A DNA stretch of 64,000 bases from Bordetella flabilis (GTDB lineage Bacteria > Pseudomonadota > Gammaproteobacteria > Burkholderiales > Burkholderiaceae_B): positions 4,712,001-4,776,000 of the forward strand of contig NZ_CP016172.1 of the NCBI RefSeq assembly GCF_001676725.1, given 5' to 3'. Shown here piece after piece: positions 2,659 through 60,832 of the stretch (position 1 is the stretch's first letter; each line of letters starts with the position of its first letter). Made by a program: the position numbers and the translations under genes. The notes under the pieces were generated by a model. The model was not told where the DNA came from and made no database searches. It saw only the letters and a list, made by a program, of their open reading frames with translations.

Positions 2659-2775
2659 CGGCCGCGCGCCGCGCGATTGGTGACCAACGGTTGCCGCCGC
2701 AGTTGAAGAAACGCTAAACCCTGTGTTTTGCTTTACGATACTGCGATTTATCCAGGACATAAGGGTTCTATAGAC

Positions 2776-45186: not shown

Positions 45187-45894
45187 ATGGACGATTGGGA
45201 GCGAGAGCGGGTAGAGCTATTGCTGGTGGCGGGCAACCAGCAGCGCTTTTTCAACCTCCTGCGCGACATCGCGGGACGGCTGGGCTTCGACTACTACGCC
45301 TTCGGCATGCGGTTGCCCTTGCCGGTCAGCAACCCCAGGCTGATCCTTCACGATAATTGCCCGGCGGGATGGCAATGGGCCACGATGACCACCGCCCTGG
45401 CGTTTGCAAGAACAGGCAGCGGCCCGATCGACGATGCGACGAACCCGCTGGTCTGGTCTACCGAACTTCCCATGTATCCCCCGCCGTTCTGGCAAGACGC
45501 CACAATGCATGGCCTGAAGGCGGGCTGGGGCCAGACATGCCACGGCCCCAGGGGCGTCAGCAGCGCACTCAACCTGGCGAGCACCCAGTCCCGGATGCCC
45601 AGGGACCTGGACCAACTGTCGCCGCGCCTGACCTGGCTGGCCCACACGGCGCACCGTGGCCTTGCCCAGTTGCTGATACCGAAATACATGCCTGAAACCC
45701 GCGCCAGTCTTTCGGGCCAGGAAGTCCAGATACTGCGGCTGACCGCCGACGGCAAGACCAGCGGCGCCATCGGCCGCATCATGCACATCTCCGAACGGAC
45801 CGTGAATTTCCATATGGAGAAAATCCTCCAGAAGCTGACGGCGGCCAACAAGACCGCCGCCGCGCTGAAGGCCGCGATGCTCGGCTTGCTGTAG
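45187..45894 (+). CDS. LuxR-family regulator with autoinducer-binding domain (LuxR solo)
   Basis: This 235-residue regulator has an N-terminal autoinducer-binding domain (residues about 10-150) and a C-terminal LuxR HTH (LSGQEVQILRLTADGKTSGA, one block, then SERTVNFHMEKILQKLTAAN, one block). No luxI synthase gene is in the window. The two pocket tryptophans (PAGW and NPLVW) are 28 residues apart, exactly as W57 and W85 of TraR. At that spacing Tyr61, Asp70 and Pro71 are replaced by Thr, Arg and Thr. GGGGGAG upstream of the ATG at 45187 fixes the start. It converges with the autotransporter gene, only 7 bases between the stops. Confidence 0.9.
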   Translation: MDDWERERVELLLVAGNQQRFFNLLRDIAGRLGFDYYAFGMRLPLPVSNPRLILHDNCPAGWQWATMTTALAFARTGSGPIDDATNPLVWSTELPMYPPPFWQDATMHGLKAGWGQTCHGPRGVSSALNLASTQSRMPRDLDQLSPRLTWLAHTAHRGLAQLLIPKYMPETRASLSGQEVQILRLTADGKTSGAIGRIMHISERTVNFHMEKILQKLTAANKTAAALKAAMLGLL

Positions 45895-45901
45895 GGCGGC
45901 C

Positions 45902-48900
45902 CTAGAACAGATACCGTATCCCCACATTCGCGGACACCGAGCTCGTGCCGTGGCCGAGGCGCTGCTGCCCGGACAGATCGCCGTAGACGGACAGGTTGGG
46001 CGTAAGCCGCCCCGTGGCGCCGACCTGCAGCTGCAGCGCCGTGCCGACCGTGCCGGGCGTGAACGAGGTATCCGCCAGCTTGACTTCGTTGTTGCCACCC
46101 CAGGTTTGCAAGAGGTTGGCCGCCACATACGGCTTCCATTGCGGCGCCGAGGGCACCGGAATGGATACCTTCACGCCGCCGCGGGCCGTCAGGTAGGTGT
46201 TGTCGCTCCAGTCGGTATGGACGCCGTCCACGTCGGTGTGATCGTCGAAGCGGAACGTCTGGCTCATCAACTGCAATTGCGGTTCGATCACGTAGCCGTT
46301 GTCGAGCGTGAAGGCCTTGCCGGTCTCCACGGACGCTTCCAGGCTATTGCCCTTGATCTTTCCGGCCTTGCCGCTCTTGTCGGTTTCGATATCGCCGTCG
46401 AAGGTGCCCGCCGACAGCACGCCGTCGACGTACCAGCCGCTCTTGTGCTGCCATGTGCCGGTCAGCGCCAGGCTGCGCGCATCGACCCGGAATTTGCTGG
46501 ATTCCGCATCCTCCGTCTTCGGACGCACGGATGTCGAGCCGATGGTCACCGCCGCGCCCAGGCGCAGGTTCTGGTCCTGGTCCGCCAGGTGCAGCCAGTT
46601 GCCGCCGATCTGCATGGCCTGGATGTCCTGGTGGAAGTCGTAGCCATAGTCATCGAAATCCCGGTTGGAACGGTAGCTGCTGCTGGAGGCGATGACGCGG
46701 CTGAACATTTCAGCTCGGTTGTCCGGCGGCGGACCGTCGTCCCCGCGGATTTCTCCCAGGCGACGGTTGAGGCTGCTCATGACCGTGGCGCCATAGTTCT
46801 GCATGGCCAATGGCGCGACCAGGTCGGAGCTCGCCTGCGCCACGACGGCAGGACGTCCGCCGCCGGGTCCACCCGGACCGCCCGGCCCCCCGGGACCGCC
46901 GCCGGGCGCGGGGACGCCCGGAACGGGATTGCCATTCGCGTCCAGATAGGCCGTCTGCAGGCGATAATCCCAATCCAGGCTGGACGCGCCCAACAGCGAT
47001 TGCGAAGCCGCCGTCTGTCCTGGCCCATAGGCGAAGACCCGGTACTGGTAGGGGCTGCCGTTGGCCGCGACATAACCGCCGGCCAGCTTGAACGAATCGC
47101 CCGATGCGTTGCCGGAGACCTGGGCCAGCGAGATGCCTTCCGTCGGCACCATCAGGTTGTTCAGCGACGTGTTCGTGTTCGCGCCGGTTCCCGTAGTATT
47201 GAGCTGTAGCGTCGTCGTGCCGGTCACGTTGCCCTTGATGAGCAAGCGGTCGGTGCTTTGCGCCGCCAAGGGGCCGCCGGTATTCAGGGCCGTGTTCATC
47301 ACCACGGTGCCACCGCCGTTGTAATCGCCGTTTACCGTCAGCGATTTATACGCCCCGCCGGACGGCGCGCCGAAGGCCACCGTACCGGCATTGGTCAGGC
47401 CGCTCACGGTCGCATCGCCTGTGACATTCCAGACGCTGGATGCGTCGTTCACATTCACCGCCGCGGTGCTGGTGGCATCCCCCAGCGTGGGCGTGCCCGT
47501 ATAGACGCTGCCGTTATTCAGATTCAGGACCAGCCCGGCGCCCGCGTCGGCGCGCAGCGTGCCCGACAAGGCCTGGCCGTCCGCGTTCAGCGTGCCTTGG
47601 CCGCCGGCCACGCGATACAGCGCCTTGCCCGCGGCAGCGTTCAAGGTTGTCCCGCTCAGGTTGACCACGCTCGCACCGTCGGAAACGATCGCGTCATCGG
47701 CGCTGTTGATCGTACCGCCCGTGAAACCGACGGTGCTGCCATGCACCGCAACGGCGGCGGTCCCAGCCGCCGTGCTGTCCACGGTGGCCGCCCCCATATC
47801 GAGTTCCCCGGCGTTGGCGACGACCCCGCCCACCTGGCTCGCGCCGCTCAAGGCCAGGCGGCCGGCGCCGTTCTTGGTGAAGGTAAGGCCGGCGCCGTTG
47901 TCGACCACGGCGCGCCAAGTCGTGTCCTGGCCGGCCTCCACATTGACCGCGCCCGCCGTGCGCAGTTCGATATTGCGCGCGGAGCTGAAGCTGCCGCCAA
48001 CATCCAGGTCGCCGCCATCCAGCACCACTTCGCGGGCGACCGAGGTATCGCCCAGGTTGCTATCGCTGGTGACCTTCAGGGTCCCGCCTTCGATGCGCGT
48101 GTTGCCGACATAATTGTTGGCGCCGCTCAATTCGAGGGTGCCGGCCCCCTGCTTGACGACGAATATGCCCTGGCCGTTCGGCGTGGTGCCATCGCCCAGG
48201 TGGTACGCCACCGTCTGCGTGGCGCCCGCGCCGACGTTATAGGTCATGTTGTCGTCGGCGCCGATGATGCCGCCCTGGCTGGCATTGGCGCCCTGGTTCA
48301 CCGTGATGTTGGGCCAGTTGTTCGCCGTCGTCTCATTGGGCGGGCCGACATCCGACAGGTCCAGCCAGCCGCCATCGAGCGTCACCGTCCTGGTGAACGT
48401 GGCGGGGGTGACGTTGCGGATCGCCAGGACACCGGACTCGATATCCGTGCCGCCCACATAACCGAACGCGTTGTTGCCCGACAGGATAAGCGTGCCCGGG
48501 CCTTTCTTTATCAGGCCCATGCCAGCCGCGTTACCGCCCGTCAGCGTGCCGGAGAATGTACCCGTGCTGGTGCCATCCAGGTTGTTGACACCGTCGACGG
48601 TCAGGGAGTTCGCGCCCAGATTGATCGTGCCGTCGCCGGAGATCATGCCGGTATTGAAATTCCCGTCGGGATTCGACACCGCCGACACGTCGAGCACGCC
48701 GGGCCCGCTCACATTGAAGGTGCGCTGGGTGGCATTGGCGGCCCCCGCCACCGCCAGCGTACCGTCCTGCACCAGAACGCCGCCGCCGCTGCCGGCGCCG
48801 AAATTGAACACATTGGCGCCCGAAAGCGTCAGGGTGCCGGTCCCCGCCTTGGTCAACCGGCCATTGCCTTGCGGCGCGTCCTGAATCGTGCCGCTGAAAT

Positions 48901-50893
48901 CGGAAGCCTGCGCAGACGATACGGTGAGATTGCTGGAGCCCAGGCTGATCGTGCCATTGCCCGCGGCAAGGCTGTTGATACGGCCCACCTGTACGCCGCC
49001 TGGCGCCGTCGAACCGGAAATATCCAGCGTGGCGCCGGGCGCCGAAAAATCGAAAGCGACCCCGGTGCCCTGCGCGGCGCCCGCCAGGCCCAGCGTGGCG
49101 GTATCCCGGATATGCGCGGTGCCGGTGAAGTTCGTCAGCGCATTGGCGCCCGTGAGCGTGAGGCTGCCGGTTCCGCTGCGGATAAGGTCGCCGTTGCCCT
49201 GTATTTGACCCGCGTAGCTGGTCTGCTGGGCGCCTGCGATGTCGAGGTCGACGGGGCCGATCAACACTTCACCGGTGCCCGCGGTACCGGTCCCCTGCAG
49301 GGAGTCCAGCGTGAAGGTGCTGGTCGGGCTGCGCGGGCTGATGTCCAGAAGGCCGTAGTCGTCCACTTGCGCGTGCAGATCCGTGGCCGTCACGCCGGCA
49401 TCCAGGCGTATCGTGCCAATCGCGGCCGGCCCGCTGCCGGCCGCCCAGAGTCCTAGCCCGTTCAGCGACGCCGTACCGGTTATGGCAGCCACGCCGCCGT
49501 TCGTCGCGTGCAAGCCCCAGGAATTCGCCCCAAGCGTGAGCGCGCTGGTCTGTGTTGCATCAAGCGTGACGTCATTGAGGAAGGCCTGGGTGCCCACGCC
49601 GTTGACCTGGATCGCAGCGCCCCCGTCACCCGTCACGCTGAAGCGGGGCAACACGGTCGCGCCGGCCGGGAGCGCCGGGTCGAAGGTCATGACCGCCGCG
49701 TTGTCCAGCACGAGCCCATTGGCGCCCGGCCCTGCCGCCTGCAGCAAGGTCGTGGGCGAGAACTGGACCGTGCTGGCTGCCTGGTTCACGCGCATCGCGT
49801 CGCTTGCGTTCGCGCCGGCGGCGATGGTCGTGTCGGTCAGCGTCACCCTGCCGGCATCGGTGGCGGAACCCACGGCCAGGCCCACCGCGCCGGCGCCGGT
49901 GGCGTTGACCGTCAGGGGTCCGCTCGCACCCAGCAGCAGCCGGGCGCCGTTGTTCACCGACAAGCCCGTCGAGTTGGTCCCGGCGGCGTTGACGGTCGTG
50001 CCGTTCATATTCAGGATCGAGCCGTTCACCACCTGTGCGCCGATCGATTGGCCGTCCACCGTAATGACGCCGTTGGTCATCGTCGCGTTGGTACCCACCC
50101 CGCCGCCGACGAGCAGGCCGCCAGCGGCGTTGCCCGAGGTATGGATGGTCGTATTCGTCAGCGTCGGTACGCCGCTGGTCGATATGAACACCCCGATGGA
50201 CTGGTCGCCGGACGTCGTGAAGCTGGCGCCTTGCACATTCAGGTTCTGCAGCACGCCTTCGAAGTCGCCGCCCAGCGCGTTGGTGCCTGTCGTGACGAAC
50301 TGCGACCCGTTGATGTTTATGGCGCTGGACTGGCCCGACGTGCCCGTCACCCGGATACCGGCGACGTTGCTGCCCAGCCCGCTCGCGCCGCCGTTGCCAT
50401 GCACGTTCACCACCGTGTTGGCGTCCATGGTGACGGTGGAGGAGGTGGAGAGACTCACGCCGTTCGAACCATTGCCTTCGACCGTGATATTCGTGCCCAC
50501 CAGGTTGACCGTGCCGCCGTTGCGGGCCACGACGCCGTCGGCATTCTGGCCGCGTGTAAGGATGGTGTTGCCGCCCGGCGCGGTGATGGACGTGCCATCG
50601 GCCAGTACGCCGATCTCGGTATCGTTGCAGGTTTCCACCGCCTGGCCGGCGCCCAGGTTGGTGGTCTGGGTCGGACCGCAGGCTGCGTAGGCCGCATTGG
50701 CCGTAAGCAGGAAGGACGCCGCCGTCCCGCCCAGCCACCACAGTGCGGATGCACCATGGCGGCGCGGGGACCGTACGCCGCCGACCACGCCGCCCGACCC
50801 GCCATGCGACGACGGATCACCCTTGGCAAGCTCGGATGCGGCCACGATCTGGCCGGTTTTCCTGCTTCGTATCAAACGATAGACTCGATTCAT
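45902..50893 (-). CDS. Large pertactin-like autotransporter (type Va)
   Basis: This is a 1663-residue autotransporter. The start at 50893 (MNRVYRLIRSRKTGQIVAAS) is the extended signal peptide region, and the frame upstream lacks it. The signal peptide ends at about residue 70 (FLLTANAAYA then ACGP). The passenger (residues about 71-1320) is beta-helix-like, with many GTLxLSGAN-type repeats such as GAGTLELSGANNYVGNT. A Pro/Gly-rich segment (about residues 1324-1346), a pertactin-type autochaperone region and a 12-strand outer-membrane barrel follow, ending in the aromatic C-terminal VGIRYLF. It is the last gene of a leftward cluster; a 152-base AT-richer gap before it could hold its own promoter. 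Likely a surface adhesin. Confidence 0.95.
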   Translation of the reverse strand: MNRVYRLIRSRKTGQIVAASELAKGDPSSHGGSGGVVGGVRSPRRHGASALWWLGGTAASFLLTANAAYAACGPTQTTNLGAGQAVETCNDTEIGVLADGTSITAPGGNTILTRGQNADGVVARNGGTVNLVGTNITVEGNGSNGVSLSTSSTVTMDANTVVNVHGNGGASGLGSNVAGIRVTGTSGQSSAININGSQFVTTGTNALGGDFEGVLQNLNVQGASFTTSGDQSIGVFISTSGVPTLTNTTIHTSGNAAGGLLVGGGVGTNATMTNGVITVDGQSIGAQVVNGSILNMNGTTVNAAGTNSTGLSVNNGARLLLGASGPLTVNATGAGAVGLAVGSATDAGRVTLTDTTIAAGANASDAMRVNQAASTVQFSPTTLLQAAGPGANGLVLDNAAVMTFDPALPAGATVLPRFSVTGDGGAAIQVNGVGTQAFLNDVTLDATQTSALTLGANSWGLHATNGGVAAITGTASLNGLGLWAAGSGPAAIGTIRLDAGVTATDLHAQVDDYGLLDISPRSPTSTFTLDSLQGTGTAGTGEVLIGPVDLDIAGAQQTSYAGQIQGNGDLIRSGTGSLTLTGANALTNFTGTAHIRDTATLGLAGAAQGTGVAFDFSAPGATLDISGSTAPGGVQVGRINSLAAGNGTISLGSSNLTVSSAQASDFSGTIQDAPQGNGRLTKAGTGTLTLSGANVFNFGAGSGGGVLVQDGTLAVAGAANATQRTFNVSGPGVLDVSAVSNPDGNFNTGMISGDGTINLGANSLTVDGVNNLDGTSTGTFSGTLTGGNAAGMGLIKKGPGTLILSGNNAFGYVGGTDIESGVLAIRNVTPATFTRTVTLDGGWLDLSDVGPPNETTANNWPNITVNQGANASQGGIIGADDNMTYNVGAGATQTVAYHLGDGTTPNGQGIFVVKQGAGTLELSGANNYVGNTRIEGGTLKVTSDSNLGDTSVAREVVLDGGDLDVGGSFSSARNIELRTAGAVNVEAGQDTTWRAVVDNGAGLTFTKNGAGRLALSGASQVGGVVANAGELDMGAATVDSTAAGTAAVAVHGSTVGFTGGTINSADDAIVSDGASVVNLSGTTLNAAAGKALYRVAGGQGTLNADGQALSGTLRADAGAGLVLNLNNGSVYTGTPTLGDATSTAAVNVNDASSVWNVTGDATVSGLTNAGTVAFGAPSGGAYKSLTVNGDYNGGGTVVMNTALNTGGPLAAQSTDRLLIKGNVTGTTTLQLNTTGTGANTNTSLNNLMVPTEGISLAQVSGNASGDSFKLAGGYVAANGSPYQYRVFAYGPGQTAASQSLLGASSLDWDYRLQTAYLDANGNPVPGVPAPGGGPGGPGGPGGPGGGRPAVVAQASSDLVAPLAMQNYGATVMSSLNRRLGEIRGDDGPPPDNRAEMFSRVIASSSSYRSNRDFDDYGYDFHQDIQAMQIGGNWLHLADQDQNLRLGAAVTIGSTSVRPKTEDAESSKFRVDARSLALTGTWQHKSGWYVDGVLSAGTFDGDIETDKSGKAGKIKGNSLEASVETGKAFTLDNGYVIEPQLQLMSQTFRFDDHTDVDGVHTDWSDNTYLTARGGVKVSIPVPSAPQWKPYVAANLLQTWGGNNEVKLADTSFTPGTVGTALQLQVGATGRLTPNLSVYGDLSGQQRLGHGTSSVSANVGIRYLF

Positions 50894-51045
50894 TCCTGTA
50901 CGCCGCCCATATGGTTGCCCGACACACACGCCGGAATTTTCCTAGACCGAAATTCGTCAAGCCCACGAGATTAGGTTTCCGATAAACGGTTATGAATAAG
51001 AAAATCCTTAGGCGCCGCGCCAGCAAGCGGGCATACGGCCTGCCG

Positions 51046-52485
51046 TCACGATGTGGTATCGGTCGCAAGGCCGACGGATCGCGTGTCGGAATACAGCGTC
51101 ACATCGCCCCGCCGCACTTCGTACTGCGCCACCAGCGTGGCGTTGGGGCCGTCGAAGCCGGACAATTGGTTCTCCGGAAACACGAAGGAGAACCGGCCCC
51201 ATAACTGGTCCGCGGGAATGGCGAATTCCGGACTGGACAGCGTGACGGACTTGGGGTTTTCCGTACCGGGAAAGCGGCCGTTCAGGAAGAGGTTCATGAC
51301 AACGGTGTCGCCACTCTGGAAAGCGGTGTACGACTGCGGGACGAATACCTGCAGGCCGCCGGCGATTGCATCACTGTCCACCGGATCGGGATTCCCGGGG
51401 AAGTAAGGCGCCAGTCCCTGCAATGCCGGGCTGGGCCGTTGGGCGCGGGCCGCGGTCACCGCGCCCATCACATTCACGGGAAGGTAGTTCGAATCCAGGC
51501 CATTGCCGCTGATGGCCGGGACGACGGTATAGGCGACGTTATTGGGCGTCTTGTCCGTCGTGTTCAACGACATGAAGTACTGCTTCGGGATTTTCACGGT
51601 ATCCCCGACCTTCAACTGGTAGGCGGCCGTCATGAAGCCGTTCAGCCAGAAACCCAGCAGGATGGGGGTGCCGTTCGTCATCCAGTCGACGCTCGGATCG
51701 GCGTCGATGGTGACCGGCACGCCGGTAGCGTCGTAATCGTCCAGGTCCACGATGTCCGGCATATCGGGCACCTGGACCCCGGTTTCCAGCCAGGTGGTGC
51801 CCAATGCGGAGAACACGAGCGGGAAGGGCCGGGTCAGCACACCGCCCCAGGTGCACCCCATCGGGATAATGGAAGGTCCGGTATTCGCGAACTTCAGGGC
51901 CGTGCGGCCATTGCGGTCCGTATACGTCAGGAAGGTATTGCCCGTGATATCGCTGGGGTCGGTCTGCGGGTTCTTGTTATCCGCGGTCAATACATAGGTC
52001 GGATTGCCCAGGTAGCCTTTCCACGTCACCTTGCTGTTGTTCAGCGGCGTCCCCTCGTCCGCGTCGCTCAGCCATAGCGTGAGCATCACGACCTTGTCCG
52101 GGTCCGGATGGTTGGAGTCGAATGGAGAGCGTTCCGGGTCCGCGGTTTCGCCATAGCCGCGGCTCATGCTGGACTGCATGCGCGGCCGGGCGCAGTCGAA
52201 CAATGCCGTGCAGTGTCCGGCGTCCGGCGCATTGGTGTCCCAGACCGAAACCAGGACCATGCGCTGGCTATCGACCCCGGGCCTGCTCTTGATGCCGACC
52301 TTGAACGTGGCCACGCCGGCCTCGACCTTCGCGGTTCCCGACTTCGCCCCGGACAGCGACGCCGTCGGAATGACGGACCATGAAATCGTATCGCCGGTAT
52401 TGCCGCCGACCCGCACCGTAAGCGTATTGAAGGTACCCACGATCAGCTGCGTATCGGGACCTGGATTGTTGAACTGGACGTCCAT
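51046..52485 (-). CDS. Ig-like repeat protein of unknown function (paralogue of the 458-residue gene)
   Basis: This 479-residue protein has no signal peptide: it starts MDVQFNNPGPDTQLIVGTFN. It appears to hold several beta-sandwich modules, for example residues about 140-210 with NNSKVTWKGYLGNPTYVLTA (one block), which resembles bacterial Ig-like (Big/invasin-type) domains. The C-terminal part (from about residue 380) matches the 458-residue gene: VFVP, a GD motif, FLNG, PG-NP, IPA and closing YS. GAGGTGAG precedes the ATG. I do not know a named family. It is in the middle of the operon between a 104-residue ORF and the autotransporter. Confidence 0.8.
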   Translation of the reverse strand: MDVQFNNPGPDTQLIVGTFNTLTVRVGGNTGDTISWSVIPTASLSGAKSGTAKVEAGVATFKVGIKSRPGVDSQRMVLVSVWDTNAPDAGHCTALFDCARPRMQSSMSRGYGETADPERSPFDSNHPDPDKVVMLTLWLSDADEGTPLNNSKVTWKGYLGNPTYVLTADNKNPQTDPSDITGNTFLTYTDRNGRTALKFANTGPSIIPMGCTWGGVLTRPFPLVFSALGTTWLETGVQVPDMPDIVDLDDYDATGVPVTIDADPSVDWMTNGTPILLGFWLNGFMTAAYQLKVGDTVKIPKQYFMSLNTTDKTPNNVAYTVVPAISGNGLDSNYLPVNVMGAVTAARAQRPSPALQGLAPYFPGNPDPVDSDAIAGGLQVFVPQSYTAFQSGDTVVMNLFLNGRFPGTENPKSVTLSSPEFAIPADQLWGRFSFVFPENQLSGFDGPNATLVAQYEVRRGDVTLYSDTRSVGLATDTTS

Positions 52486-52560
52486 GGCATCTCACCTCAA
52501 TATTGGGTTCATCGCGCACGAACCGCCGTGCGGCCATGCGCGGCCACGCACCGACGCACG

Positions 52561-52875
52561 TCAGGACCGTGCGGTCTGCCGAGAAGGAGGCCAATCCGGA
52601 ATCTGGAGCTGGGCGGAATAAACGTCGTCGTTCTCATCGTCGTCGTCCTTCAGGCCGTACAAGGTCAGGCTGTATGTGTATGCCGTATCGAACTGCATGG
52701 GCAGCGACACCGAAACCGCGGCGGCGTCCCGCACCAGGAAGGCATTGAAGCCGTTCATCCAGTCGATGCGGACAGAGAAGCCGACGTTGCCGTCGAGCTT
52801 CAGCAGATCCCAAGTCGCGCTCACGATCCCCGCGGGGTCGTAAGTGGCCGTCTTCAGATTTATCGCGTAGGCCAT
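52561..52875 (-). CDS. 104-residue beta-rich protein of unknown function
   Basis: The product begins MAYAINLKTATYDPAGIVSA and has alternating hydrophobic strands (VGFSVRIDWMNGFNAFLVRD, one block; QFDTAYTYSLTLYGLKDDDD, one block), then an acidic stretch. It looks like one small beta-sandwich domain, without signal peptide or membrane segment. GGAGGG lies shortly before the ATG. I do not recognise the family. It sits between the Hint-domain gene and the second Ig-like gene on the same strand, so it is presumably part of their function, perhaps as a chaperone or subunit. Confidence 0.7.
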   Translation of the reverse strand: MAYAINLKTATYDPAGIVSATWDLLKLDGNVGFSVRIDWMNGFNAFLVRDAAAVSVSLPMQFDTAYTYSLTLYGLKDDDDENDDVYSAQLQIPDWPPSRQTARS

Positions 52876-52952
52876 GGCTTATCCCTCCGAAATATCGTCG
52901 ACATCCGCCCGGCGGATTCGCCCGGCCTCGTCCTGTCATGCGACCGGCTGAA

Positions 52953-54746
52953 TCACTTCTTGCCCTGCATTCTGTCGTTGGCCGCCTGGCGCCTGAGGGC
53001 GGCCTGCGCGACGTGGTCGCCCACCAGGATGGCGCCGGCATAGAAGGCGTGATCGTCGGTATCGGCCAGGGCGCCTCCATTGGCGGCGGCAAGATGCACG
53101 CTATACACGGCGGACGGCTTGTCGCGGTTATCCATGCGCACCTCGCGCAAGGCGGACGGACCGTTGCGTCCGTACACGGTATCGCCCACCTTCAGATGGT
53201 CGGCCCGGCGCATGCCGTCCGTCGTCAAAACCGGATGGTCGAAGGTCACTACCACGGCGTCGCCCGCGGCATTCACCAGCTTGACGAAGTTCCGGTCGTG
53301 GCCCGGAGTAATCCCCGTCACGCGCAGGTGCTTCCCGGACGGTCCCATCACGATATCGCCGGCTTTCAGCTTTTCGATGGGTACGCTGCCGCCGTCCGCC
53401 AGGGCGACCGGGGTTCCCTCTATGACGCAGCCCCATTGGAAACCGACAGGCGGAAGCAGCTTGTTGGTGTCGTAGCCGTCCGCGTCCGACAGGGAACCCA
53501 GCCCGATCGGTATGTAGTTCATCGGCTGCCCGTTCACGACATCGTAGAGCGACGCGACCATGAACCAGTCCTGTACATCGCTGGGGCTGAGGGCCGTGCA
53601 TGCCGATATCGAGCCCGCGCTCAGGTAGTTCTTGGCATCCGTCCGGTCGTTAGGATTGGAGAACTGCCAGGTCAGCTTGTTGCCGTTTACGTAGAAGCCC
53701 TTCCACGGCGCGCCCAGGTTGAATACCGCATCGCATGCGCCGCCTTCGACCTTCACCAGCTTGATCATCAAGGACGCGGGCTTACCGCCGCCCTTGCTGG
53801 GAAAGCCTGGAACGACCCGGCCGTCGTCCAGCGTGACCGTATAGATATTGTTGAGGGTGGTCAGCGTCCCCGCGAATGGAAACAGCAGGTCCAGGTTGTC
53901 GTTCTCCGTGCCAGGCTCCGTCGGCCCGTAATCGCAGAAATCCCCGGCCGTGTTGGTCGCGCCGCGGTTCAGGCAGATAATCGTGCGGTCCTTGCCGGTG
54001 GCCGGCTTCTGATGGCCGGTGGCAAAGGTTGGGTCCCATACGTTCACCGACGTCGTACCCCCGCTGCGGTCACGGTCCATGCGGACATTCCAGCAGAACG
54101 GGCTGCCCCCGGCCTCGCCCACGAAGGTGACCACCGTGATCACGTTCGCCATGGATGGGTTATTCGGGCCCGTGCCGAATCCCTCCGCCACGACCGGCAT
54201 ATACCGCATGCTGGCGTCGCCGTCATTGGTGCCGGCCGCGATCAGCTGATAGGCCAGCCCGTTCGAGTCTTTCGTATAGACGTTGACCGTCTGGCTCTCG
54301 TACTTGGACGTGTCCGTATCGTTGACGAACATGGTGCTGAAGGACATCGCCGTGACGTTCCTGAAATAAACATCCGTCGCGGTAATGTGGACCACGGAGT
54401 AACCGTCCGGGGCGTGGTTCATGCCATAGCGGACCGGCCGCCCGGTCGCGGTACGGTCGGGGAACTTCCACTTGCTCGTCTTCAATTTATCCAAGGTGCG
54501 GTACGCGGCGGGAAAGCTCTTCGGATCGCGGCCCCACATATTCAACAGCGCCCGGTAGGCGGGCTCGAAATCCTGGCTGCATGCCACCGGCTCGCCCGTC
54601 GCCGGTATGTTGTCCGCGGCGGCGCGCATCGCGCGATCGTCTTCGGGACTGGGCGGGTGGAAGGTCTTGGCAAAGGCTGCATGCATGGGCATCAGCGCCA
54701 TCAAGGCGCACACCGCGATAGCCGCGATCGACAAAGGGGGCCGCAT
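52953..54746 (-). CDS. Secreted protein with C-terminal Hint (hedgehog/intein-like) domain
   Basis: This 597-residue protein has a signal peptide (MRPPLSIAAIAVCALMALMP then MHAAFAK). Residues about 27-439 form a secreted domain of unknown fold with several Cys. From Cys440 on is a Hint self-processing domain: Gly439-Cys440 followed by VIEGTPVALADGG, IEKLKAGDIVMGPSG, and the TxxH motif Thr501-His504 in VVTFDHPVLT. It ends with a region like DDHAFYAGAILVGDH, where classic inteins end in HN. The lack of the terminal Asn suggests cleavage or acyl transfer at Cys440 instead of splicing. AGGAG precedes the ATG. It is the second gene of the cluster. Confidence 0.88.
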   Translation of the reverse strand: MRPPLSIAAIAVCALMALMPMHAAFAKTFHPPSPEDDRAMRAAADNIPATGEPVACSQDFEPAYRALLNMWGRDPKSFPAAYRTLDKLKTSKWKFPDRTATGRPVRYGMNHAPDGYSVVHITATDVYFRNVTAMSFSTMFVNDTDTSKYESQTVNVYTKDSNGLAYQLIAAGTNDGDASMRYMPVVAEGFGTGPNNPSMANVITVVTFVGEAGGSPFCWNVRMDRDRSGGTTSVNVWDPTFATGHQKPATGKDRTIICLNRGATNTAGDFCDYGPTEPGTENDNLDLLFPFAGTLTTLNNIYTVTLDDGRVVPGFPSKGGGKPASLMIKLVKVEGGACDAVFNLGAPWKGFYVNGNKLTWQFSNPNDRTDAKNYLSAGSISACTALSPSDVQDWFMVASLYDVVNGQPMNYIPIGLGSLSDADGYDTNKLLPPVGFQWGCVIEGTPVALADGGSVPIEKLKAGDIVMGPSGKHLRVTGITPGHDRNFVKLVNAAGDAVVVTFDHPVLTTDGMRRADHLKVGDTVYGRNGPSALREVRMDNRDKPSAVYSVHLAAANGGALADTDDHAFYAGAILVGDHVAQAALRRQAANDRMQGKK

Positions 54747-54823
54747 TTTGGTACTCCTGGTGGTATGGAGCTATCCCGCGCGCACTGCCGGTCCCGGCCT
54801 TGATGGCCGTACCGGGCCGCCAA

Positions 54824-54854
54824 CCGGATCAGCGTGGGCGGCACGCCGATCCGG
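54824..54854. other. Intercistronic hairpin between the first Ig-like gene and the Hint gene
   Basis: CCGGATC / GATCCGG (7 bp) encloses GCGTG / CACGC (5 bp) around GGCGG. No T-run follows. It lies between two genes of the surface-protein operon and may set a processing or stability boundary. Confidence 0.45.
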
Positions 54855-54862
54855 CCTGCGCA

Positions 54863-56239
54863 TCAAGCCGTCACGAGCGGAATGATGGGCGACAGGGGCG
54901 CCGAATAGGTCGACTTATCGCCTGCGCTCCCCCAGCCCTTGTAGTAATAGCACTCGAACGTGCCGCGCTCGTTGTTGTTGGCTGCGTAGCCACCCAGGTT
55001 GCCCGCCGGGATCATGACCGCGTTGGTGCCTGTCGTCGTGGCCGTATATTCCACGGGGTAGCTGTTCGCGATGGCATCGGGCGGGTTCTGGCCGGGCGCC
55101 CAGCCGTTGAGGAAATAAACCAGGGTGATCTTATCGCCGGTGGTCAGCTCCGGCACGAATACCGTGATGTCGCCTTTCAGCAGCAAGGGGATGTTGATAA
55201 TGCCGATACCCAGGACATACGGTTTGGCCAGTTCCCCGTCCGTGGGCGGATGCTGCCAGGTATCTCCCGTCACCGTAGCCAGCACGGCCTGGGACTGCGT
55301 CGTGATGCCGCTCGTGGTGTCGGTAGTCATCCAGTTCACGTAGTACTCGGTCTGCCCCGAGAACTTCTGCTTCTGTATGTTGACGCCGGTCTTCAGGCTT
55401 TCGTACGGCACGATATCGCTTGCGGCGGTACGGTTCACCAAGGCAATCACGGGCTGCGTCGGCGGCACGGTATGGTCCAGGTCGCCCACGATCGTGGCGT
55501 TGACGAAGGGTCCCGGGAAATCATCCAGGTTCAAGGGCGACCACAGATTGAACTGGGGCAGCGGTCCGCCCGTCAGTTCCGGCATGAAACTCAGGTGGTC
55601 GTTATCGGCGGAGTACTGGCTGCCATAGCGCACGCTGCAGGTGTACACGCCTTCGAACTCGCTCGACACCTTGAAGGTTGCCGGCTGGCCGGTGCTGCCG
55701 GTATAGAAATAATAGTTGTAGTTGGCGTCCGGCTGCAGTTCGTTGCCGGCGGAATCGTATACATGCACGTTCGCCTGCATTTGGAAGGCGACCGGATAGT
55801 TCTTGAGCGGCGTACCATGCCACGTGAACTGCACGGTCGCGGTGGCGGTATAGCCTGGTTTCCCCAGGTCGCTGGGTTGCGGGGCGACGGGCACGGACTT
55901 CGGGCTCAGCACCAGCTTGCCAGTCTTGACCCACGCCGTCGTGTAAGTCCCGCTGATATAGGGCGTGCCGGTAGGCGAAGGCCTGACATCGATGGTCACC
56001 GTCTCGTTTTCGGTGAGCGCCCCGTATATCACCGTCACCGCCAGTTCTCCCGTGACGGGGTCCGTCATTACGGGCGCAGCCTGCGGCGGTTCGAACTTCA
56101 CATTGCTGTCGGTGCAGGTGAAGACGACCGGGACGTCCTTGGGATCGGCGGGCCCGGGCGGCACATAGGTAAAGACGAATCGCATCGGGGCGTCCACGCC
56201 CATGGCCGAACCACTGGGCGGCATAATCGTATTGGCCAT
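54863..56239 (-). CDS. Ig-like repeat protein of unknown function, first gene of the surface-protein operon
   Basis: This 458-residue protein starts MANTIMPPSGSAMGVDAPMR with GGAG six bases before it. It has no signal peptide. The body is a series of beta-rich modules, including FVFTYVPPGPADPKDVPVVF (one block) near the start and VQFTWHGTPLKNYPVAFQMQ (one block) in the middle, like bacterial Ig-like domains. The C-terminal domain from about residue 360 (VFVPELTTGDKITLVYFLNG, one block) is shared with the 479-residue protein. How it leaves the cell, if it does, is unclear. It is nearest to the lux-box promoter. Confidence 0.8.
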   Translation of the reverse strand: MANTIMPPSGSAMGVDAPMRFVFTYVPPGPADPKDVPVVFTCTDSNVKFEPPQAAPVMTDPVTGELAVTVIYGALTENETVTIDVRPSPTGTPYISGTYTTAWVKTGKLVLSPKSVPVAPQPSDLGKPGYTATATVQFTWHGTPLKNYPVAFQMQANVHVYDSAGNELQPDANYNYYFYTGSTGQPATFKVSSEFEGVYTCSVRYGSQYSADNDHLSFMPELTGGPLPQFNLWSPLNLDDFPGPFVNATIVGDLDHTVPPTQPVIALVNRTAASDIVPYESLKTGVNIQKQKFSGQTEYYVNWMTTDTTSGITTQSQAVLATVTGDTWQHPPTDGELAKPYVLGIGIINIPLLLKGDITVFVPELTTGDKITLVYFLNGWAPGQNPPDAIANSYPVEYTATTTGTNAVMIPAGNLGGYAANNNERGTFECYYYKGWGSAGDKSTYSAPLSPIIPLVTA

Positions 56240-56359
56240 CTGGAATCTCCTTGGCGTGTTGGATGATTTCAAAGCCCCAGGTCCGGCAGCGCGCAAGAAC
56301 CAGGTCCGGCAGCGCGCGAGTGATATTTCCCGCGCAACCGAATGTTCGTCATGGAAATC

Positions 56360-56386
56360 ATTCTATGGAGCCGCCGATGTAATACG
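56360..56386 (-). promoter_or_regulatory. Candidate sigma-70 promoter of the surface-protein operon
   Basis: On the minus strand, TTCGTA (overlapping the last bases of the lux-type palindrome) is followed after 17 bases by TAGAAT (56365 to 56360). The predicted start is near 56353. The -35 is poor, as in promoters that need an activator. Confidence 0.4.
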
Positions 56387-56406
56387 AACTGGCAGAAGTG
56401 CCAGTT
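56387..56406. promoter_or_regulatory. Perfect 20-bp palindrome, lux-box type
   Basis: AACTGGCA-GAAG-TGCCAGTT, arms identical to their complements. It contains CT-N12-AG, the core of lux/las/rhl boxes. Its centre is about 157 bases before the start of the first operon gene, and about 43.5 bases before the predicted transcription start. It could also look like a rightward terminator because TTTATTTT follows, but no rightward gene ends here. Confidence 0.6.
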
Positions 56407-56556
56407 TTTATTTTGCGGAAGCCTCGGCCGGCCAAGGGAATTCAAAACTGCCGGCAGGCTGCCCGGAGCGGCGCGCGCGGACTGCCCCGGCAAGGAAACG
56501 GGATGACGCCCCGCGACCGCGGAGGCCGTGTTTGCCGCCTTCGTGGCGTAGCAGCG

Positions 56557-57381
56557 TCAGGGCTGGATATCGGCGGGCATCGTGCCTACGCCGCGGGACA
56601 GGAAGCGCCAGTAGCGCGGTCCCGTACCGGTATCTGTTACGACGGCGCCGCCCACATTGACCCGGCCCTGTCGCGGACACGACGGGTCGCGCGCCATCTG
56701 CACGGAAGCGTTGCCCCGTGCAGCCAGCATCAGCCACTCGCGCGGCGCGTAGCCTTGTTCGACCGGCACGCCGGTGATGGCGAGACGGGTGCACAGGCCC
56801 ACGAAGGTTTGCGGACCCAGCAAGGCGAAACGGATAGGGGTCGTTCCGGGATTGTCCACGCGCAGCCAGACCGCGGCACCGTGAACGGCATCGCTACGCT
56901 GTCCCAGCACGGTAATGCGCAAGGGCTGCTCCAGGGCCGGGTCGCGCGGCCATTGCAGATCGGCGCGCGCCTGGCCGGCCAGCACCTGGCGCGCCGTATC
57001 GGCCGCGAAGGCGGCACGGCCGCGCCATTGCGCGAATGCTTCGGTCTTGCAGCCGCCGGCATTGCCCACCACCCCCACGGCTTGCTCGGGCGTCATCAGG
57101 ACCGGTGGCGTTTCGTCCTGCAACCTTTCCAGCATGGCTTTGGCCGAGAGCTTCAGGCGCTGCCTGGCGACCGTTTCCAGTTCCCTGAAACGACGCGCCT
57201 CGCGGTCCCGGTCGCCATCGGGGCACAGGACATCGACCTTGGCCAGCATGTCCCACGCTGTGACGGCCTGGCGCAAGGTGTAGTGTTCGCCGGCCTCCAC
57301 GGCAGGCGCGCCGGTGGCCTGCATCGCGACGCCGGACAGCAAGGCCGCGATCAGCGCCGTCGGCCGGCGCGCCGGCCGCAT
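56557..57381 (-). CDS. Exported protein of unknown function
   Basis: This 274-residue product starts MRPARRPTALIAALLSGVAM, an apparent signal peptide cleaved near AQATGA/APAVEA. The mature part has alpha-helical stretches (REARRFRELETVARQRLKLS, one block) and several Cys; no family is recognised. An alternative start at 57492 overlaps the MaoC stop as ATGA and adds 37 Arg-rich residues before the hydrophobic segment. I prefer the internal start because it yields a normal signal peptide, but the coupled start is possible. It is the last leftward gene of the box cluster. Confidence 0.65.
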   Translation of the reverse strand: MRPARRPTALIAALLSGVAMQATGAPAVEAGEHYTLRQAVTAWDMLAKVDVLCPDGDRDREARRFRELETVARQRLKLSAKAMLERLQDETPPVLMTPEQAVGVVGNAGGCKTEAFAQWRGRAAFAADTARQVLAGQARADLQWPRDPALEQPLRITVLGQRSDAVHGAAVWLRVDNPGTTPIRFALLGPQTFVGLCTRLAITGVPVEQGYAPREWLMLAARGNASVQMARDPSCPRQGRVNVGGAVVTDTGTGPRYWRFLSRGVGTMPADIQP

Positions 57382-57488: not shown

Positions 57489-57938
57489 TCAAGCGGACGT
57501 GTCCTCGCCCAGTTCGAACAGGCTGGTCGCGTCCAGCTCCAGCACCGCTTCGTCGTGCTGGTTGTAGACGGTCCAGCTCCAGTTGATGATGCCCAGGTCG
57601 CTGCGCGACGAAGAATTACGCACGCCATGCACGCGTGCCTCCAGCCGCAACTGGTCGCCGGGCCGCACCGGCACGCGCCAGCGCACTTCGCCCAGCCCGG
57701 GGGAACCGAAGGACTCCGAATCGTGCAGGGCCGCATCCACGGCCATGCGCATCGCCATGGCGCAGGTGTGCCAGCCGCTGGCGATCAACCCGCCCCAGCG
57801 GCCCTGTTCGGCGCGCTGGACATCGGTATGGAACCACTGTGGATCGTACTTGCGGGCGAAATCGAGGATTTCGGCCTCGGTAACCTTGACGGGACCGGCA
57901 TGGATCACCATGCCCTGCTTGAAATCGGCGAACTTCAT
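57489..57938 (-). CDS. MaoC-family hydratase-like protein
   Basis: This 149-residue hot-dog-fold protein resembles the MaoC (R)-specific enoyl-CoA hydratase family. The active-site motif FARKYDPQWFHTDVQRAEQG (one block) carries the Asp-His pair, and LIASGWHTCAMAMRM is the conserved Gly-Trp-His segment. It is 81 bases downstream of boxA on the same strand. Hydration of an enoyl-CoA intermediate of the box or following beta-oxidation route is possible. It may alternatively be a thioesterase-like relative. Confidence 0.85.
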   Translation of the reverse strand: MKFADFKQGMVIHAGPVKVTEAEILDFARKYDPQWFHTDVQRAEQGRWGGLIASGWHTCAMAMRMAVDAALHDSESFGSPGLGEVRWRVPVRPGDQLRLEARVHGVRNSSSRSDLGIINWSWTVYNQHDEAVLELDATSLFELGEDTSA

Positions 57939-58019
57939 AAAGCGGCTTCCTGTTGGCGACCGCGCGGGGCTTCGCCATGCCGGACGCCGGTCGGGCGCCT
58001 GGGCGAAGAAGCGTCGCGG

Positions 58020-59354
58020 TCAGTACGTCTCGAAATGCAGCCTGCCTTGGCGGCACAAGGCCTGGTGGAGGATAGTCCAATCCTGGCCGGCTTGCACAAC
58101 GGCGTGCCGCAGGGCCTCCAGCACGCCGGTTTCCATCCCCTTCAGGCCACAAACGTACACGCACGTCTTCTCGTCGTTCAGCAAGGCGAGCACGTCCTCC
58201 GCCCGTTCCACGATCAGGTCCTGCACGTAGCGCCTGGGCCGCCCGGGCTCGCGCGACAAGGCAAGGTTGATGTCGATGAAGTCCCTGGGCAGTTTCATCA
58301 GCGGGCCGAAGTACGGCAGTTCGCGCCGCGTGCGGGCGCCGAAGAACAGCATCAGCTTGCCGTTTTCGTCGCCGCCCATGCGGCGCCGGCAACGCTCGGT
58401 CATGGCGCGCATGGGCGCCGAGCCGGTGCCCGTGCAGATCATCAGCAGATTGGCGCCCGGCCGGCCGGGCATCAGGAAGGTATTGCCGAAGGGACCGATC
58501 ACGCGCACCGTATCGTGCTTGGCCAGGTCGCACAGGTAGTTCGAGCACACACCCGCGTGGGTATTTCCGTCTTGGCCCGCCACCACGCGCTTCACGGTCA
58601 GGGACAGGTTGTTGTAGCCGGGGCGCTCGCCGTCGCGCGGGCTGGCGATGGAATACTGGCGAGCGTGATGGGGCCGGCCCCGCGCATCCACGCCCGGCGG
58701 CAGGATGCCGATGGATTGGCCTTCCAGCACGGGGAACGGCGCTTCGCCGAAGTCCAGCACGATGTGACGTACATCGCTTTCGGCGTCGCCATCGGTGACG
58801 CGGTAATTGCCGACCACGGTGGCGGTGACCGGTTCCTTGTGGGTGTAGAGGTTGACGTAGGGGTGGGCCGCCGACCAGGGCGGGACGACGGCGCCGGCAA
58901 CCTGGGCCGGTTTTGCCGTATCCGCCGCATCGTCGGCTGCTTCGCCGGCCGTCGCCACGGCCGCGCCGGGGCCGGCGGCCGCGGCCGCAGCGGCGGGCGA
59001 GTTCACCGCCGGCGCCGAAGCGGACGCCGGAGCGGCCTCCGCGTCCGCCGCCGCGGCGGCGGCCAACAGATCTTCCACGGGCTCCTGCGGCGGCAAGGCA
59101 TCCCAGCCGAATTGCGCGTCCACGCCATACGCCCGCGCGCGCGGGATGACGCGCCAGTTATCGATGGACCCCGTGGGGCAAGGCGGCACGCAGGCCATGC
59201 AGCCGTTGCAGATGTCCGGATTGACGACGTAGTTATTGCCATCGTGCGTGATGGCGCCGATGGGACAGGTCTCCTCGCAGGTGTTGCAGCGGATGCAGAT
59301 CTCCGGATCGATCAGGTGCTGCTTCAACAGCGTGGCAGGCAGGGGCGCGTTCAT
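58020..59354 (-). CDS. boxA: Benzoyl-CoA oxygenase reductase component
   Basis: BoxA is the NADPH-dependent iron-sulfur flavoprotein that feeds electrons to BoxB. The 444-residue protein has two [4Fe-4S] motifs at the N-terminus ([14 protein letters not shown] and [14 protein letters not shown]), a linker rich in Ala (residues about 95-155), then a ferredoxin-reductase-like domain with FAD segment [20 protein letters not shown] (one block) and NADP segment [12 protein letters not shown]. It follows boxB by 36 bases, in the boxCBA order on one strand. The Ala-rich linker is longer than I would expect. Confidence 0.95.
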
Positions 59355-59390
59355 CGTTTCACCCTCGGTGCGGCGGACGCGTGCCGCGGT

Positions 59391-60818
59391 TCAATTGAAG
59401 CGCACGTACTCGAAGTCGACCGGCTGGCGGTTCACCCCCATGACGGGCGGTGCGATCCAGTTGGCGAACTTTCCGGGCTCGGTGACGCGGCCCATGAGCG
59501 AGGCGACGAAGGCACGGTCATCCTCGGTGGGCAGCCAGCGCGCCTGGCCGGCGCGCCACTGCGCGTCGTCCACGATCTCGCCTTCGGGCGTGACCTTGAT
59601 GCCGGCCAGCGTGCCGATCTGGCGGTTGAAGGCCTTGTGCGGCACGGCCAGCCGGAAGGGAATCCCGTTCTTTTCGATGACCTTGTTCCAGCGGCCGACG
59701 CCGGCCATCGAATCGCGGATGAAGTCATCGCGCAGCACTTCGTTGAGGGCGTTCAACATGGGCACTTCGACTTCGTGCAGCTTGCCGCCGTCCAGCGCCA
59801 GGATGCGATAAATGTCGTGCTTGAGCTGGTGGTCGTCCTTGCGCTTGCCTTCCTCGTAGCGCCCCTTCAGGCCGGCGCTGTAGAAGATGGCGGCATTGGA
59901 CGACTGGTCGGCGCCGAACAGGTCGATGGTGACGCTGTAGTGGAAGTTCAGGTAGCGCTGGATGGTGGGCAGGTCGATCACGCCCGCGGCGCGCACCGCG
60001 GCGGGGTCGTCGGTCTTCAACTGGTTCATCACCTCGCAGGTGCGCTGGATGATGCGCGAGACGCCGGACTCGCCGACGAACATGTGGTGCGCCTCTTCGG
60101 TCAGCATGAACTTCGTCGTGCGCGCCAGCGGGTCGAAGCCGGATTCCGCCAGCGCGCACAACTGGAACTTGCCGTCCCGATCGGTGAAGTAGGTGAACAT
60201 GTAGAAGGACAGCCAGTCCGGCGTCCTTTCGTTGAAAGCGCCCAGGATGCGCGGATTATCGGCGTCGCCGGACGTGCGCTGCAGCAGCGCGTCGGCCTCT
60301 TCACGGCCATCGCGGCCGAAATAGCGGTGCAGCAGATAGACCATGGCCCACAGGTGCCGGCCTTCTTCCACGTTGATCTGGAACAGATTGCGCAAATCGT
60401 ATTGCGACGGCGCGGTCAGCCCCAGGTGGCGCTGCTGCTCAATGGAGGCGGGTTCCGTGTCGCCCTGCGTGACGATGATGCGGCGCAGGTTCGCCCGGTG
60501 TTCGCCGGGCACGTCCTGCCACACGTCGCGGCCCGCGTTTTCGCCGAAGTGGATCTTGCGCTGGCCGTCCTGCGGCGCCAGGAAAATGCCCCAACGGTAG
60601 TCGGGCATCTTCACATGGGCGAAATGCGCCCAGCCGTCGGGCTCGACGCTGACGGCCGTGCGCAGGTACACGTCGTGGTTGTGCGAACCGTCGGGGCCCA
60701 TGTCGCGCCACCACTGCAGGTAGTTCGGCTGCCAGTGCTCGAGGGCGCGCTGCAGGGCGCGGTCGCCGGACAGATTGACGTTGTTGGGAATCTTGTCGGA
60801 ATAGTTGACGCCTGGCAT
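59391..60818 (-). CDS. boxB: Benzoyl-CoA 2,3-epoxidase (oxygenase component)
   Basis: BoxB is a di-iron epoxidase forming 2,3-epoxybenzoyl-CoA. The 475-residue length is normal (about 473). The start MPGVNYSDKIPNNVNLSGDR (one block) is canonical. Ferritin-like metal ligands are visible in NVEEGRHLWAMVYLLHRYF and LTEEAHHMFVGESGVSRII. The C-terminus VNRQPVDFEYVRF is the family's. It lies 14 bases after boxC and before boxA. The upstream frame extension to 61073 overlaps boxC and is not coding. Confidence 0.97.
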   Translation of the reverse strand: MPGVNYSDKIPNNVNLSGDRALQRALEHWQPNYLQWWRDMGPDGSHNHDVYLRTAVSVEPDGWAHFAHVKMPDYRWGIFLAPQDGQRKIHFGENAGRDVWQDVPGEHRANLRRIIVTQGDTEPASIEQQRHLGLTAPSQYDLRNLFQINVEEGRHLWAMVYLLHRYFGRDGREEADALLQRTSGDADNPRILGAFNERTPDWLSFYMFTYFTDRDGKFQLCALAESGFDPLARTTKFMLTEEAHHMFVGESGVSRIIQRTCEVMNQLKTDDPAAVRAAGVIDLPTIQRYLNFHYSVTIDLFGADQSSNAAIFYSAGLKGRYEEGKRKDDHQLKHDIYRILALDGGKLHEVEVPMLNALNEVLRDDFIRDSMAGVGRWNKVIEKNGIPFRLAVPHKAFNRQIGTLAGIKVTPEGEIVDDAQWRAGQARWLPTEDDRAFVASLMGRVTEPGKFANWIAPPVMGVNRQPVDFEYVRFN

Positions 60819-60832
60819 ATCGGTGCTCCCGG

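What the first reader, a model, noticed from the sequence alone, without database searches (positions are those of the whole stretch)
45187..56406. LuxR-linked operon of Ig-like proteins, a Hint-domain protein and a giant autotransporter behind a perfect lux-type box
Five leftward genes run from 56239 to 45902: Ig-like protein, Hint protein, small beta protein, second Ig-like protein and autotransporter. Upstream is the 20-bp palindrome AACTGGCA-GAAG-TGCCAGTT, whose core fits CT-N12-AG. A candidate -10 places its centre near -43.5, where lux boxes act. A LuxR-family regulator lies at the other end, and no other regulator lies between. I know of no described system with this combination. I infer a quorum- or signal-controlled surface-display module.
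Basis: partly seen in the sequence, partly recalled or inferred. Interest (0 to 1): 0.85.

Follow-up and report, generated by a model that had tools for sequence, protein, structure and literature searches.

The report
LuxR solo controlling surface-protein operon
A Bordetella-type bacterium carries a former quorum-sensing regulator that appears to have kept its ancestral DNA target but lost the usual signal-binding residues, and that target now sits in front of an operon of immunoglobulin-like, intein-like (Hint) and autotransporter proteins.

Summary
Five leftward genes (56239-45902) lie behind a perfect 20-bp palindrome (56387-56406), with a convergent luxR at the far end. The palindrome is best read as a lux-type box. 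A motif learned from flanks of 57 luxR relatives, without using the window, is AACTGTCAAnnTTGACAGTT; its best match in the 64 kb is this palindrome (18.7 bits; reached by 3 of 200 whole-window and 0 of 20,000 local shuffles). The -10 (TAGAAT) lies 21 nt past the box, the peak spacing in 29 luxI promoters of relatives. An over-extended related protein (P0018) back-translates to the same box and -10, so the element is conserved in that locus. 'Quorum control' is not supported: no luxI in the window, and AHL-motif residues Y61, D70 and P71 are lost in 8 of 8 operon-type LuxRs, each kept in 60 of 61 relatives. The Ig-Hint-Ig core also occurs without linked luxR: four other Burkholderiales genomes have it with another lipoprotein instead of the autotransporter. 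The Ig proteins show no signal peptide, so 'surface display' is supported only for the autotransporter. LuxR solos with altered D70 are known; this is a new variant.

The parts
56387..56406 (.). lux-type box, perfect 20-bp palindrome AACTGGCA-GAAG-TGCCAGTT
   Evidence: conserved in the locus of P0018
56360..56365 (-). candidate -10 TAGAAT, 21 nt past the box
   Evidence: same offset as the peak in 29 luxI promoters of relatives; compatible codons in P0018. The strict sigma-70 scan did not list it
54863..56239 (-). Ig1: 458-aa protein of tandem Ig-like domains, no visible signal peptide
52953..54746 (-). Hint protein, 597 aa: signal peptide by inspection, beta-rich N-terminal part, C-terminal Hint domain
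53016..53429 (-). Hint domain from C440 to D577 (C440, T501-x-x-H504 kept; 'LVGD' where inteins have 'VHN')
   Evidence: (C440, T501, H504, G576, D577 invariant in 15 sequences); intein block comparison recalled
52561..52875 (-). small 104-aa beta protein, resembling an extra N-terminal domain of Ig2 in L099/L100
   Evidence: BLASTP against single subjects, no composition correction: L100 23% over 73 aa, E 1.4e-5; L099 21%, E 4.3e-4
51046..52485 (-). Ig2: 479-aa Ig-like protein, no visible signal peptide
   Evidence: a relative (L099) hits Big_1 weakly, below cutoff
45902..50893 (-). type Va autotransporter (ESPR, PATR repeats, AC_1 autochaperone, beta-barrel)
45187..45894 (+). luxR solo, 235 aa, Autoind_bind + GerE, ligand motif W-T-R-T-W instead of W-Y-D-P-W

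Best explanation
The operon is under control of the convergent LuxR protein, a LuxR solo descended from an AHL receptor. It would bind as a dimer to the palindrome at 56387-56406, which overlaps the -35 position, and recruit RNA polymerase at the TAGAAT promoter, as its relatives presumably do at luxI. The DNA-binding half and the target were kept while the AHL pocket was rewritten (Y61 and P71 lost, D70 to Arg/Lys in 7 of 8) and no luxI remains at the locus, so the input is most likely a non-AHL ligand or none. The output is the autotransporter plus a conserved Ig-Hint-Ig cassette: a secreted Hint protein that may cut itself at C440, and signal-less Ig-like proteins. SHOWN by computation: gene content, motif match, promoter spacing, element conservation in one related locus, motif loss, cassette synteny. 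INFERRED: binding, activation, ligand, single transcript, Hint cleavage, and function of the Ig proteins.
For: Motif from 57 luxR loci, seeded only from their flanks, ranks 56387 first in 64 kb; 3 of 200 window shuffles and 0 of 20,000 local shuffles reach the score. 29 of 35 luxI loci carry the box upstream of luxI, with a -10 peak at 21 nt; the window's TAGAAT (5 of 6) is at 21 nt. P0018 back-translation: 16 of 16 arm positions compatible, 12 uniquely determined; of 112,566 positions x frames in 138 held proteins only P0018 itself fits. LuxR and Hint and/or Ig1 relatives share exact contig lengths: 261019, 577709, 42545, 457747. DNA-binding half more conserved than ligand half, 60-88% against 36-76%, in 7 of 7 pairs. 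Y61, D70, P71 lost in 8 of 8, each kept in 60 of 61 relatives; group support 100/100.
Against: The box carries G/C where the relatives' consensus has T/A (G is 4% in that column). DNA of orthologous loci could not be read: none was found among the genomes searched, so conservation rests on one protein-coded stretch. luxR is convergent and 10.5 kb from the box, so adjacency alone says little. The hairpin also scores as a plus-strand terminator. The window's own genome could not be searched for luxI or other LuxRs.
Confidence: 0.72

Rival explanations
1. The palindrome is an intrinsic terminator, not a protein site.
For: Stable hairpin (z -4.3 on +, -3.6 on -) with a T-rich tail on the + strand.
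Against: The T-rich tail points along the + strand, where the ORFs (54800-56266 antisense to Ig1; 56202-56660 across the palindrome) look mechanical, though I did not test them. Terminator-like sites in the region are no more frequent than in shuffles (9 against 7.6). It does not explain the match to the luxR-flank motif, the -10 spacing, or the conservation of box and -10 together.
Confidence: 0.06
2. LuxR is still an AHL receptor of the SdiA/QscR eavesdropping kind, so the operon is under true quorum or foreign-AHL control.
For: Autoind_bind domain over threshold; nearest solved relatives are RhlR, QscR and SdiA; many ligand-half residues invariant in the group; luxI in 39 of 60 relative loci rows.
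Against: Y61, D70 and P71 lost in 8 of 8. D70 binds the AHL amide in TraR, and alanine at the equivalent D75 stops PluR and PauR (passages of PMC4414361). No luxI in the window.
Confidence: 0.13
3. The regulator works without a small ligand, as an apo-activator or repressor, and responds only to its own level.
For: Destroyed AHL motif with better-kept DNA-binding half.
Against: Many ligand-half residues stay invariant in the group; a basic residue at position 70 in 7 of 8 suggests a new contact rather than decay.
Confidence: 0.2
4. The operon is governed mainly by another regulator (e.g. a Bvg-type system) and the LuxR link is incidental.
For: Two distant cassettes lie beside a BvgS-like kinase gene; the four distant loci lack a linked luxR.
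Against: Box plus -10 and luxR co-occur in the contig of P0018/P0020, and luxR with operon genes in further contigs.
Confidence: 0.1

Closest known systems
LuxR solos with altered ligand motif (PluR/PauR; plant-associated solos; the hchA-adjacent group in PMC4338825)
   Same: LuxR domain plan, no adjacent luxI, substitutions among W57-Y61-D70-P71-W85-G113. The hchA-adjacent group lists Y61T/S, D70R and P71T among its changes (passage seen).
   Different: Different genomic context and target operon; basic residue at D70 in 7 of 8. A word search of two surveys' main texts finds no Bordetella.
LuxR/LuxI pairs of Oxalobacteraceae and kin (loci L001-L055)
   Same: Best matches outside the operon-type group; near-identical box and -10 spacing.
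   Different: Nearly all keep W-Y-D-P-W and many have luxI; where luxI is present the box usually fronts it, here it fronts a surface-protein operon.
Hint/intein-like domains (BIL domain 2lwy; Hedgehog autoprocessing domain 1at0)
   Same: Same fold (2lwy TM-score 0.81 by target length); C440 and TxxH kept.
   Different: No C-terminal His-Asn; sits at the C-terminus of a secreted beta-rich protein of unknown function.
Ig1-Hint-Ig2-lipoprotein loci of other Burkholderiales (L097-L100)
   Same: Homologous Hint, Ig2 and, by profile comparison, Ig1.
   Different: Lipoprotein with He_PIG and Kelch domains (Pfam run on L098 and L099 only) in place of the autotransporter, no linked luxR; BvgS-like kinase gene beside the L099 and L100 cassettes.
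Type Va autotransporters
   Same: ESPR, PATR, AC_1 and barrel domains.
   Different: Placed as last gene of an Ig/Hint operon.

Membership tests
LuxR solo | Autoinducer-binding domain plus LuxR-type HTH | tested here: met
   both over the gathering score
LuxR solo | No cognate luxI in the genome | tested here: inconclusive
   none in the 64-kb window with five luxI queries; whole genome not held
AHL-responsive LuxR receptor | W57-Y61-D70-P71-W85 motif residues | tested here: not met
   Y61, D70, P71 lost; W57, W85 kept
AHL-responsive LuxR receptor | Response to an AHL | not testable with these tools
   needs a reporter assay
lux-type box promoter | CT-N12-AG dyad matching the motif of the LuxR subfamily | tested here: met
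lux-type box promoter | Box spaced from the -10 as in relatives' targets | tested here: met
   21 nt, as in luxI promoters of relatives; start site itself not mapped
lux-type box promoter | Bound by LuxR | not testable with these tools
   needs EMSA or ChIP
Hint superfamily | Hint fold | tested here: met
Hint superfamily | Catalytic Cys1 and TxxH | tested here: met
   C440, T501, H504 invariant in 15 sequences
Splicing intein / BIL type A | C-terminal His-Asn for Asn cyclisation | tested here: not met
   G576-D577 invariant at the end of the conserved block; place of His-Asn in inteins recalled
Type Va autotransporter | C-terminal barrel with signal region | tested here: met
Secreted Ig-like surface protein (Ig1, Ig2) | Signal peptide | tested here: not met
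   hydropathy of the first 80 residues of the window proteins and seven relatives; no dedicated signal-peptide predictor available

The most novel reading that the evidence does not exclude
A former AHL receptor was converted to a non-AHL sensor with a basic pocket residue and captured, with its ancestral box, an Ig-Hint-Ig cassette whose secreted Hint protein works Hedgehog-like: its thioester at C440 transfers the N-terminal domain to a partner on the cell surface, coupling a chemical signal to covalent surface assembly.
Probability: 0.12. Interest if true: 0.88.

Novelty: new variant of a known kind. Interest (0 to 1): 0.57.

Why it matters
It is a compact example of regulatory rewiring that can be tested directly: same DNA box, no synthase at the locus, rewritten ligand pocket, new target. 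It gives a ready reporter (box, -10, LuxR) for finding a non-AHL ligand in Bordetella-type bacteria. It also brings to view a multi-genome cassette of Ig-like and Hint proteins for which my literature searches (capped listings of open-access papers only) listed no description.

Tried and rejected
Hint alignment against genome contigs: no relatives; viral contigs: none; phages: no match; plasmids: 7 weak records. Search of 268 genomes of the family nearest to the window (family of G497; 300 asked, 268 returned): 1 weak hit, to the Hint part only, and 0 of 6 in the genus, so palindrome conservation could not be read from DNA of orthologous loci. Ranking by the acyl-CoA dehydrogenase was used only to find that family. 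Perfect palindromy as evidence by itself was rejected: 6 such in the window, 63 with spacers 0-10. A first count seeded with the window's own palindrome (85 sites within 4 mismatches in L001-L055 against 37.3 expected) was replaced by the unseeded motif. The second motif hit, 26825 (12.7 bits), was rejected as chance: 32 of 200 shuffles reach it and it lies inside an ORF. Terminator reading weighed and put low. A prophage or plasmid origin found no support.

Limits of my own tests. The motif search fixed a width of 20 and a palindromic form beforehand. Box counts near luxR (48 of 57 loci have at least 12 bits within 1.5 kb; 74 sites in 205 kb near, 12 in 766 kb far) are partly circular, since the motif was trained on 1-kb flanks; 9 of 57 have none, and 6 of 35 luxI loci have no box of 12 bits before luxI. 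'Operon-type' LuxRs means the window and P0019-P0025; four share exact contig lengths with operon proteins, one (P0022) is linked only through its species, P0019 and P0021 are unproved. L033 was dropped from the tree because of a stop; P0026 and L007 in it are the same protein. The search scored only the first candidates per genome. Hydropathy stands in for a signal-peptide predictor.
Full report
OBSERVATION. Reading leftward from 56239: a 458-aa Ig-like protein (Ig1), a 597-aa protein with a C-terminal Hint domain, a 104-aa beta protein, a 479-aa Ig-like protein (Ig2) and an autotransporter ending at 45902. Gaps are 116, 77, 75 and 116 nt, the last counted to the GTG of the autotransporter ORF, so one transcript is plausible but not shown. 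luxR (45187-45894, +) is convergent with the autotransporter, 7 bp apart. Pfam gives Autoind_bind and GerE for LuxR, and ESPR, PATR, AC_1 and the barrel for the autotransporter. Hint matches lie below gathering scores, Ig1 and Ig2 have only chance-level matches, the small protein none. No other regulator is among the five products.

THE PALINDROME. AACTGGCAGAAGTGCCAGTT at 56387-56406 is unique in the window within three mismatches. Palindromy alone is weak evidence: six perfect 8-4-8 palindromes occur in 64 kb, one with CT-N12-AG. The better test used relatives. LuxR relatives were found in named genomes (102 confirmed, best 80 kept). From the 1-kb flanks of 57 of these 80 I learned a 20-bp palindromic motif with seeds taken only from those flanks: AACTGTCAAnnTTGACAGTT. 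Scanned over the window, its best hit is 56387 with 18.7 bits, the next 12.7. A second motif from the other 23 loci (16 of them Pseudomonas), ACCTACCAGATCTGGTAGGT, also ranks 56387 first (12.7 bits). In dinucleotide shuffles of the window, 3 of 200 reach 18.7; in shuffles of the 317-bp upstream region, 0 of 20,000. The site differs from the relatives' outer consensus by one symmetric base, G/C where T/A is usual (G is 4% there).

PROMOTER GEOMETRY. In 29 of 35 relatives with luxI a box of at least 12 bits lies within 300 bp upstream of luxI (28 of 29 at about 64-92 bp before the start, one at about 280), and matches to TATAAT peak 21 nt after the box (mean 3.03 of 6, against 1.65 over all offsets; 2.83 at 22 nt). 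In the window the best hexamer, TAGAAT (5 of 6), is 21 nt after the box. A strict two-hexamer scan finds no sigma-70 promoter here, which would fit a box that replaces the -35.

CONSERVATION. DNA of orthologous loci was out of reach: genome contigs and 268 genomes of the nearest family gave no Bordetella-type operon, and the window's own genome is not held. One window into a related locus exists. P0018, an Ig1 relative (49% identity) on a 261,019-base contig, was called with 61 extra N-terminal residues. They contain NWQFCQLVLHRPLHRMIS. Back-translated, these fit the palindrome at 16 of 16 arm positions (12 uniquely determined) and the -10. The box lies 165 nt before the ATG there and 167 nt in the window, so in the window the stretch is out of frame with Ig1 and is conserved as DNA. 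Among 138 held proteins (112,566 positions x frames) only this stretch of P0018 fits the palindrome.

CO-OCCURRENCE. Operon-type LuxRs (identity at least 56%) number seven besides the window's own: P0019-P0025 (the next is 49%). P0020, P0023 and P0024 share exact contig lengths with both Hint and Ig1 relatives (261019, 577709, 42545), and P0025 with an Ig1 relative (457747). P0019 (1,717-base contig) and P0021 are undecided.

THE REGULATOR. In a tree of 69 rows the eight operon-type LuxRs form one group with 100/100 support. TraR positions Y61, D70 and P71 are lost in all eight (D70: R 4, K 3, G 1), while among 61 other rows Y, D and P are each kept in 60; W57 and W85 are kept in all 69. luxI is found in 39 of the 60 loci rows of that tree; none is found in the window with five luxI queries. 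The DNA-binding half is more conserved than the ligand half in 7 of 7 pairs. PMC4414361 (passages) states that D70 contacts the AHL amide in TraR and that alanine at the equivalent D75 stops PluR and PauR. PMC4338825 (passages) lists solos with D70R and P71T beside hchA, so a change here is not new in itself. A word search of its main text and of PMC10134790 finds no Bordetella. Listings for Bordetella with LuxR or AHL terms showed nothing on this locus (10 of 4,267 shown; 3 of 3; 12 of 277); only listings were seen.

THE CASSETTE. The Hint alignment found full-length distant relatives in four of 398 genomes drawn from another Burkholderiales family (six more had hits to all or part of the Hint domain only). 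In these four (L097-L100) an Ig1-like gene, Hint, Ig2 and a further lipoprotein gene are neighbours; in L098 Hint comes before Ig1. Pfam, run on the L098 and L099 copies, gives He_PIG plus Kelch for the lipoprotein. Ig2 relatives are clear by tblastn in L098-L100 (E 1.7e-20 to 3.1e-15); in L097 only by position and alignment (27%). Ig1 is weak by sequence (21-23%) but clear by profile: window-type against L097/L098 97.7% (E 1.8e-12), L097/L098 against L099/L100 98.4% (E 8.7e-15), window-type directly against L099/L100 85.9%. In L099 and L100 a BvgS-like hybrid kinase gene lies next to the cassette (Pfam for L099; L100 by likeness). In both, Ig2 carries an extra N-terminal domain that resembles the window's small protein (weak), which suggests the two work together. 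LuxR homologs exist in these genomes but not in the 20-kb stretches; the best in G101 is about 59 kb away. No box of 12 bits is in L098-L100; L097 has one before a neighbouring gene, not before the cassette. So regulator and outer-surface partner differ between lineages while the Ig-Hint-Ig core is shared. Weaker Hint relatives on Pseudoalteromonas and Tistrella plasmids also lie in runs of secreted-looking or large hypothetical proteins.

STRUCTURE. The Ig1 model (pLDDT 84.8) is mostly beta; its matches are tandem Ig/macroglobulin-type proteins, intimin D0-D1 and an S-layer protein, with low whole-chain TM-scores, so only the domain type is supported. The Hint model (pLDDT 70.8; blocks of residues 441-580 at 75-92) matches the bacterial intein-like domain 2lwy (TM-score 0.81 by target) and Hedgehog autoprocessing domains. 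C440, T501 and H504 are invariant in 15 sequences; the block ends in invariant G576-D577, not the His-Asn of splicing inteins (recalled), so cleavage or transfer at C440 is possible but splicing is unlikely.

VERDICT. A Bordetella-type LuxR solo whose ancestral lux box and promoter spacing are retained in front of an Ig-Hint-Ig-autotransporter operon, with the AHL pocket rewritten. The regulatory reading of the first stage is largely right; 'quorum' is doubtful; 'surface display' is half supported. The window's organism is inferred, not told: its Ig1 matches a protein on a 5,835,727-base contig (P0011) and its named close relatives are Bordetella.

Noticed in passing
L097:3047-3066: Strong lux-type box (22.9 bits, AACTGTCATTTACGACAGTT) about 42 bp before a 330-aa secreted-looking ORF (2012-3004, -) with no Pfam match, about 1.7 kb past the cassette's lipoprotein gene.
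   Followed up: partly
L099:3424-6735 and L100:12446-15754: BvgS-like hybrid sensor kinase genes lie directly beside the Ig-Hint-Ig cassette in two genomes (Pfam for L099).
   Followed up: partly
L104:3407-12020: Pseudoalteromonas plasmid run: M4 peptidase/PKD/GEVED protein, Hint protein, internalin-like and GEVED proteins; a related Hint-with-surface-proteins arrangement.
   Followed up: partly
contig of P0020/P0009/P0018 (261,019 bases): LuxR is 87% identical to the window's while Hint and Ig1 are only 49%: the structural genes diverge much faster than the regulator, or were exchanged.
   Followed up: no
window 57489-61073: Leftward genes with MaoC, ferredoxin/NAD-oxidoreductase and a sub-threshold PaaA_PaaC match, which look like a benzoyl-CoA box pathway (name recalled).
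   Followed up: no
L015: Labelled Kiritimatiellae, but its LuxR is nearly identical to Rugamonas: probably a binning error.
   Followed up: no
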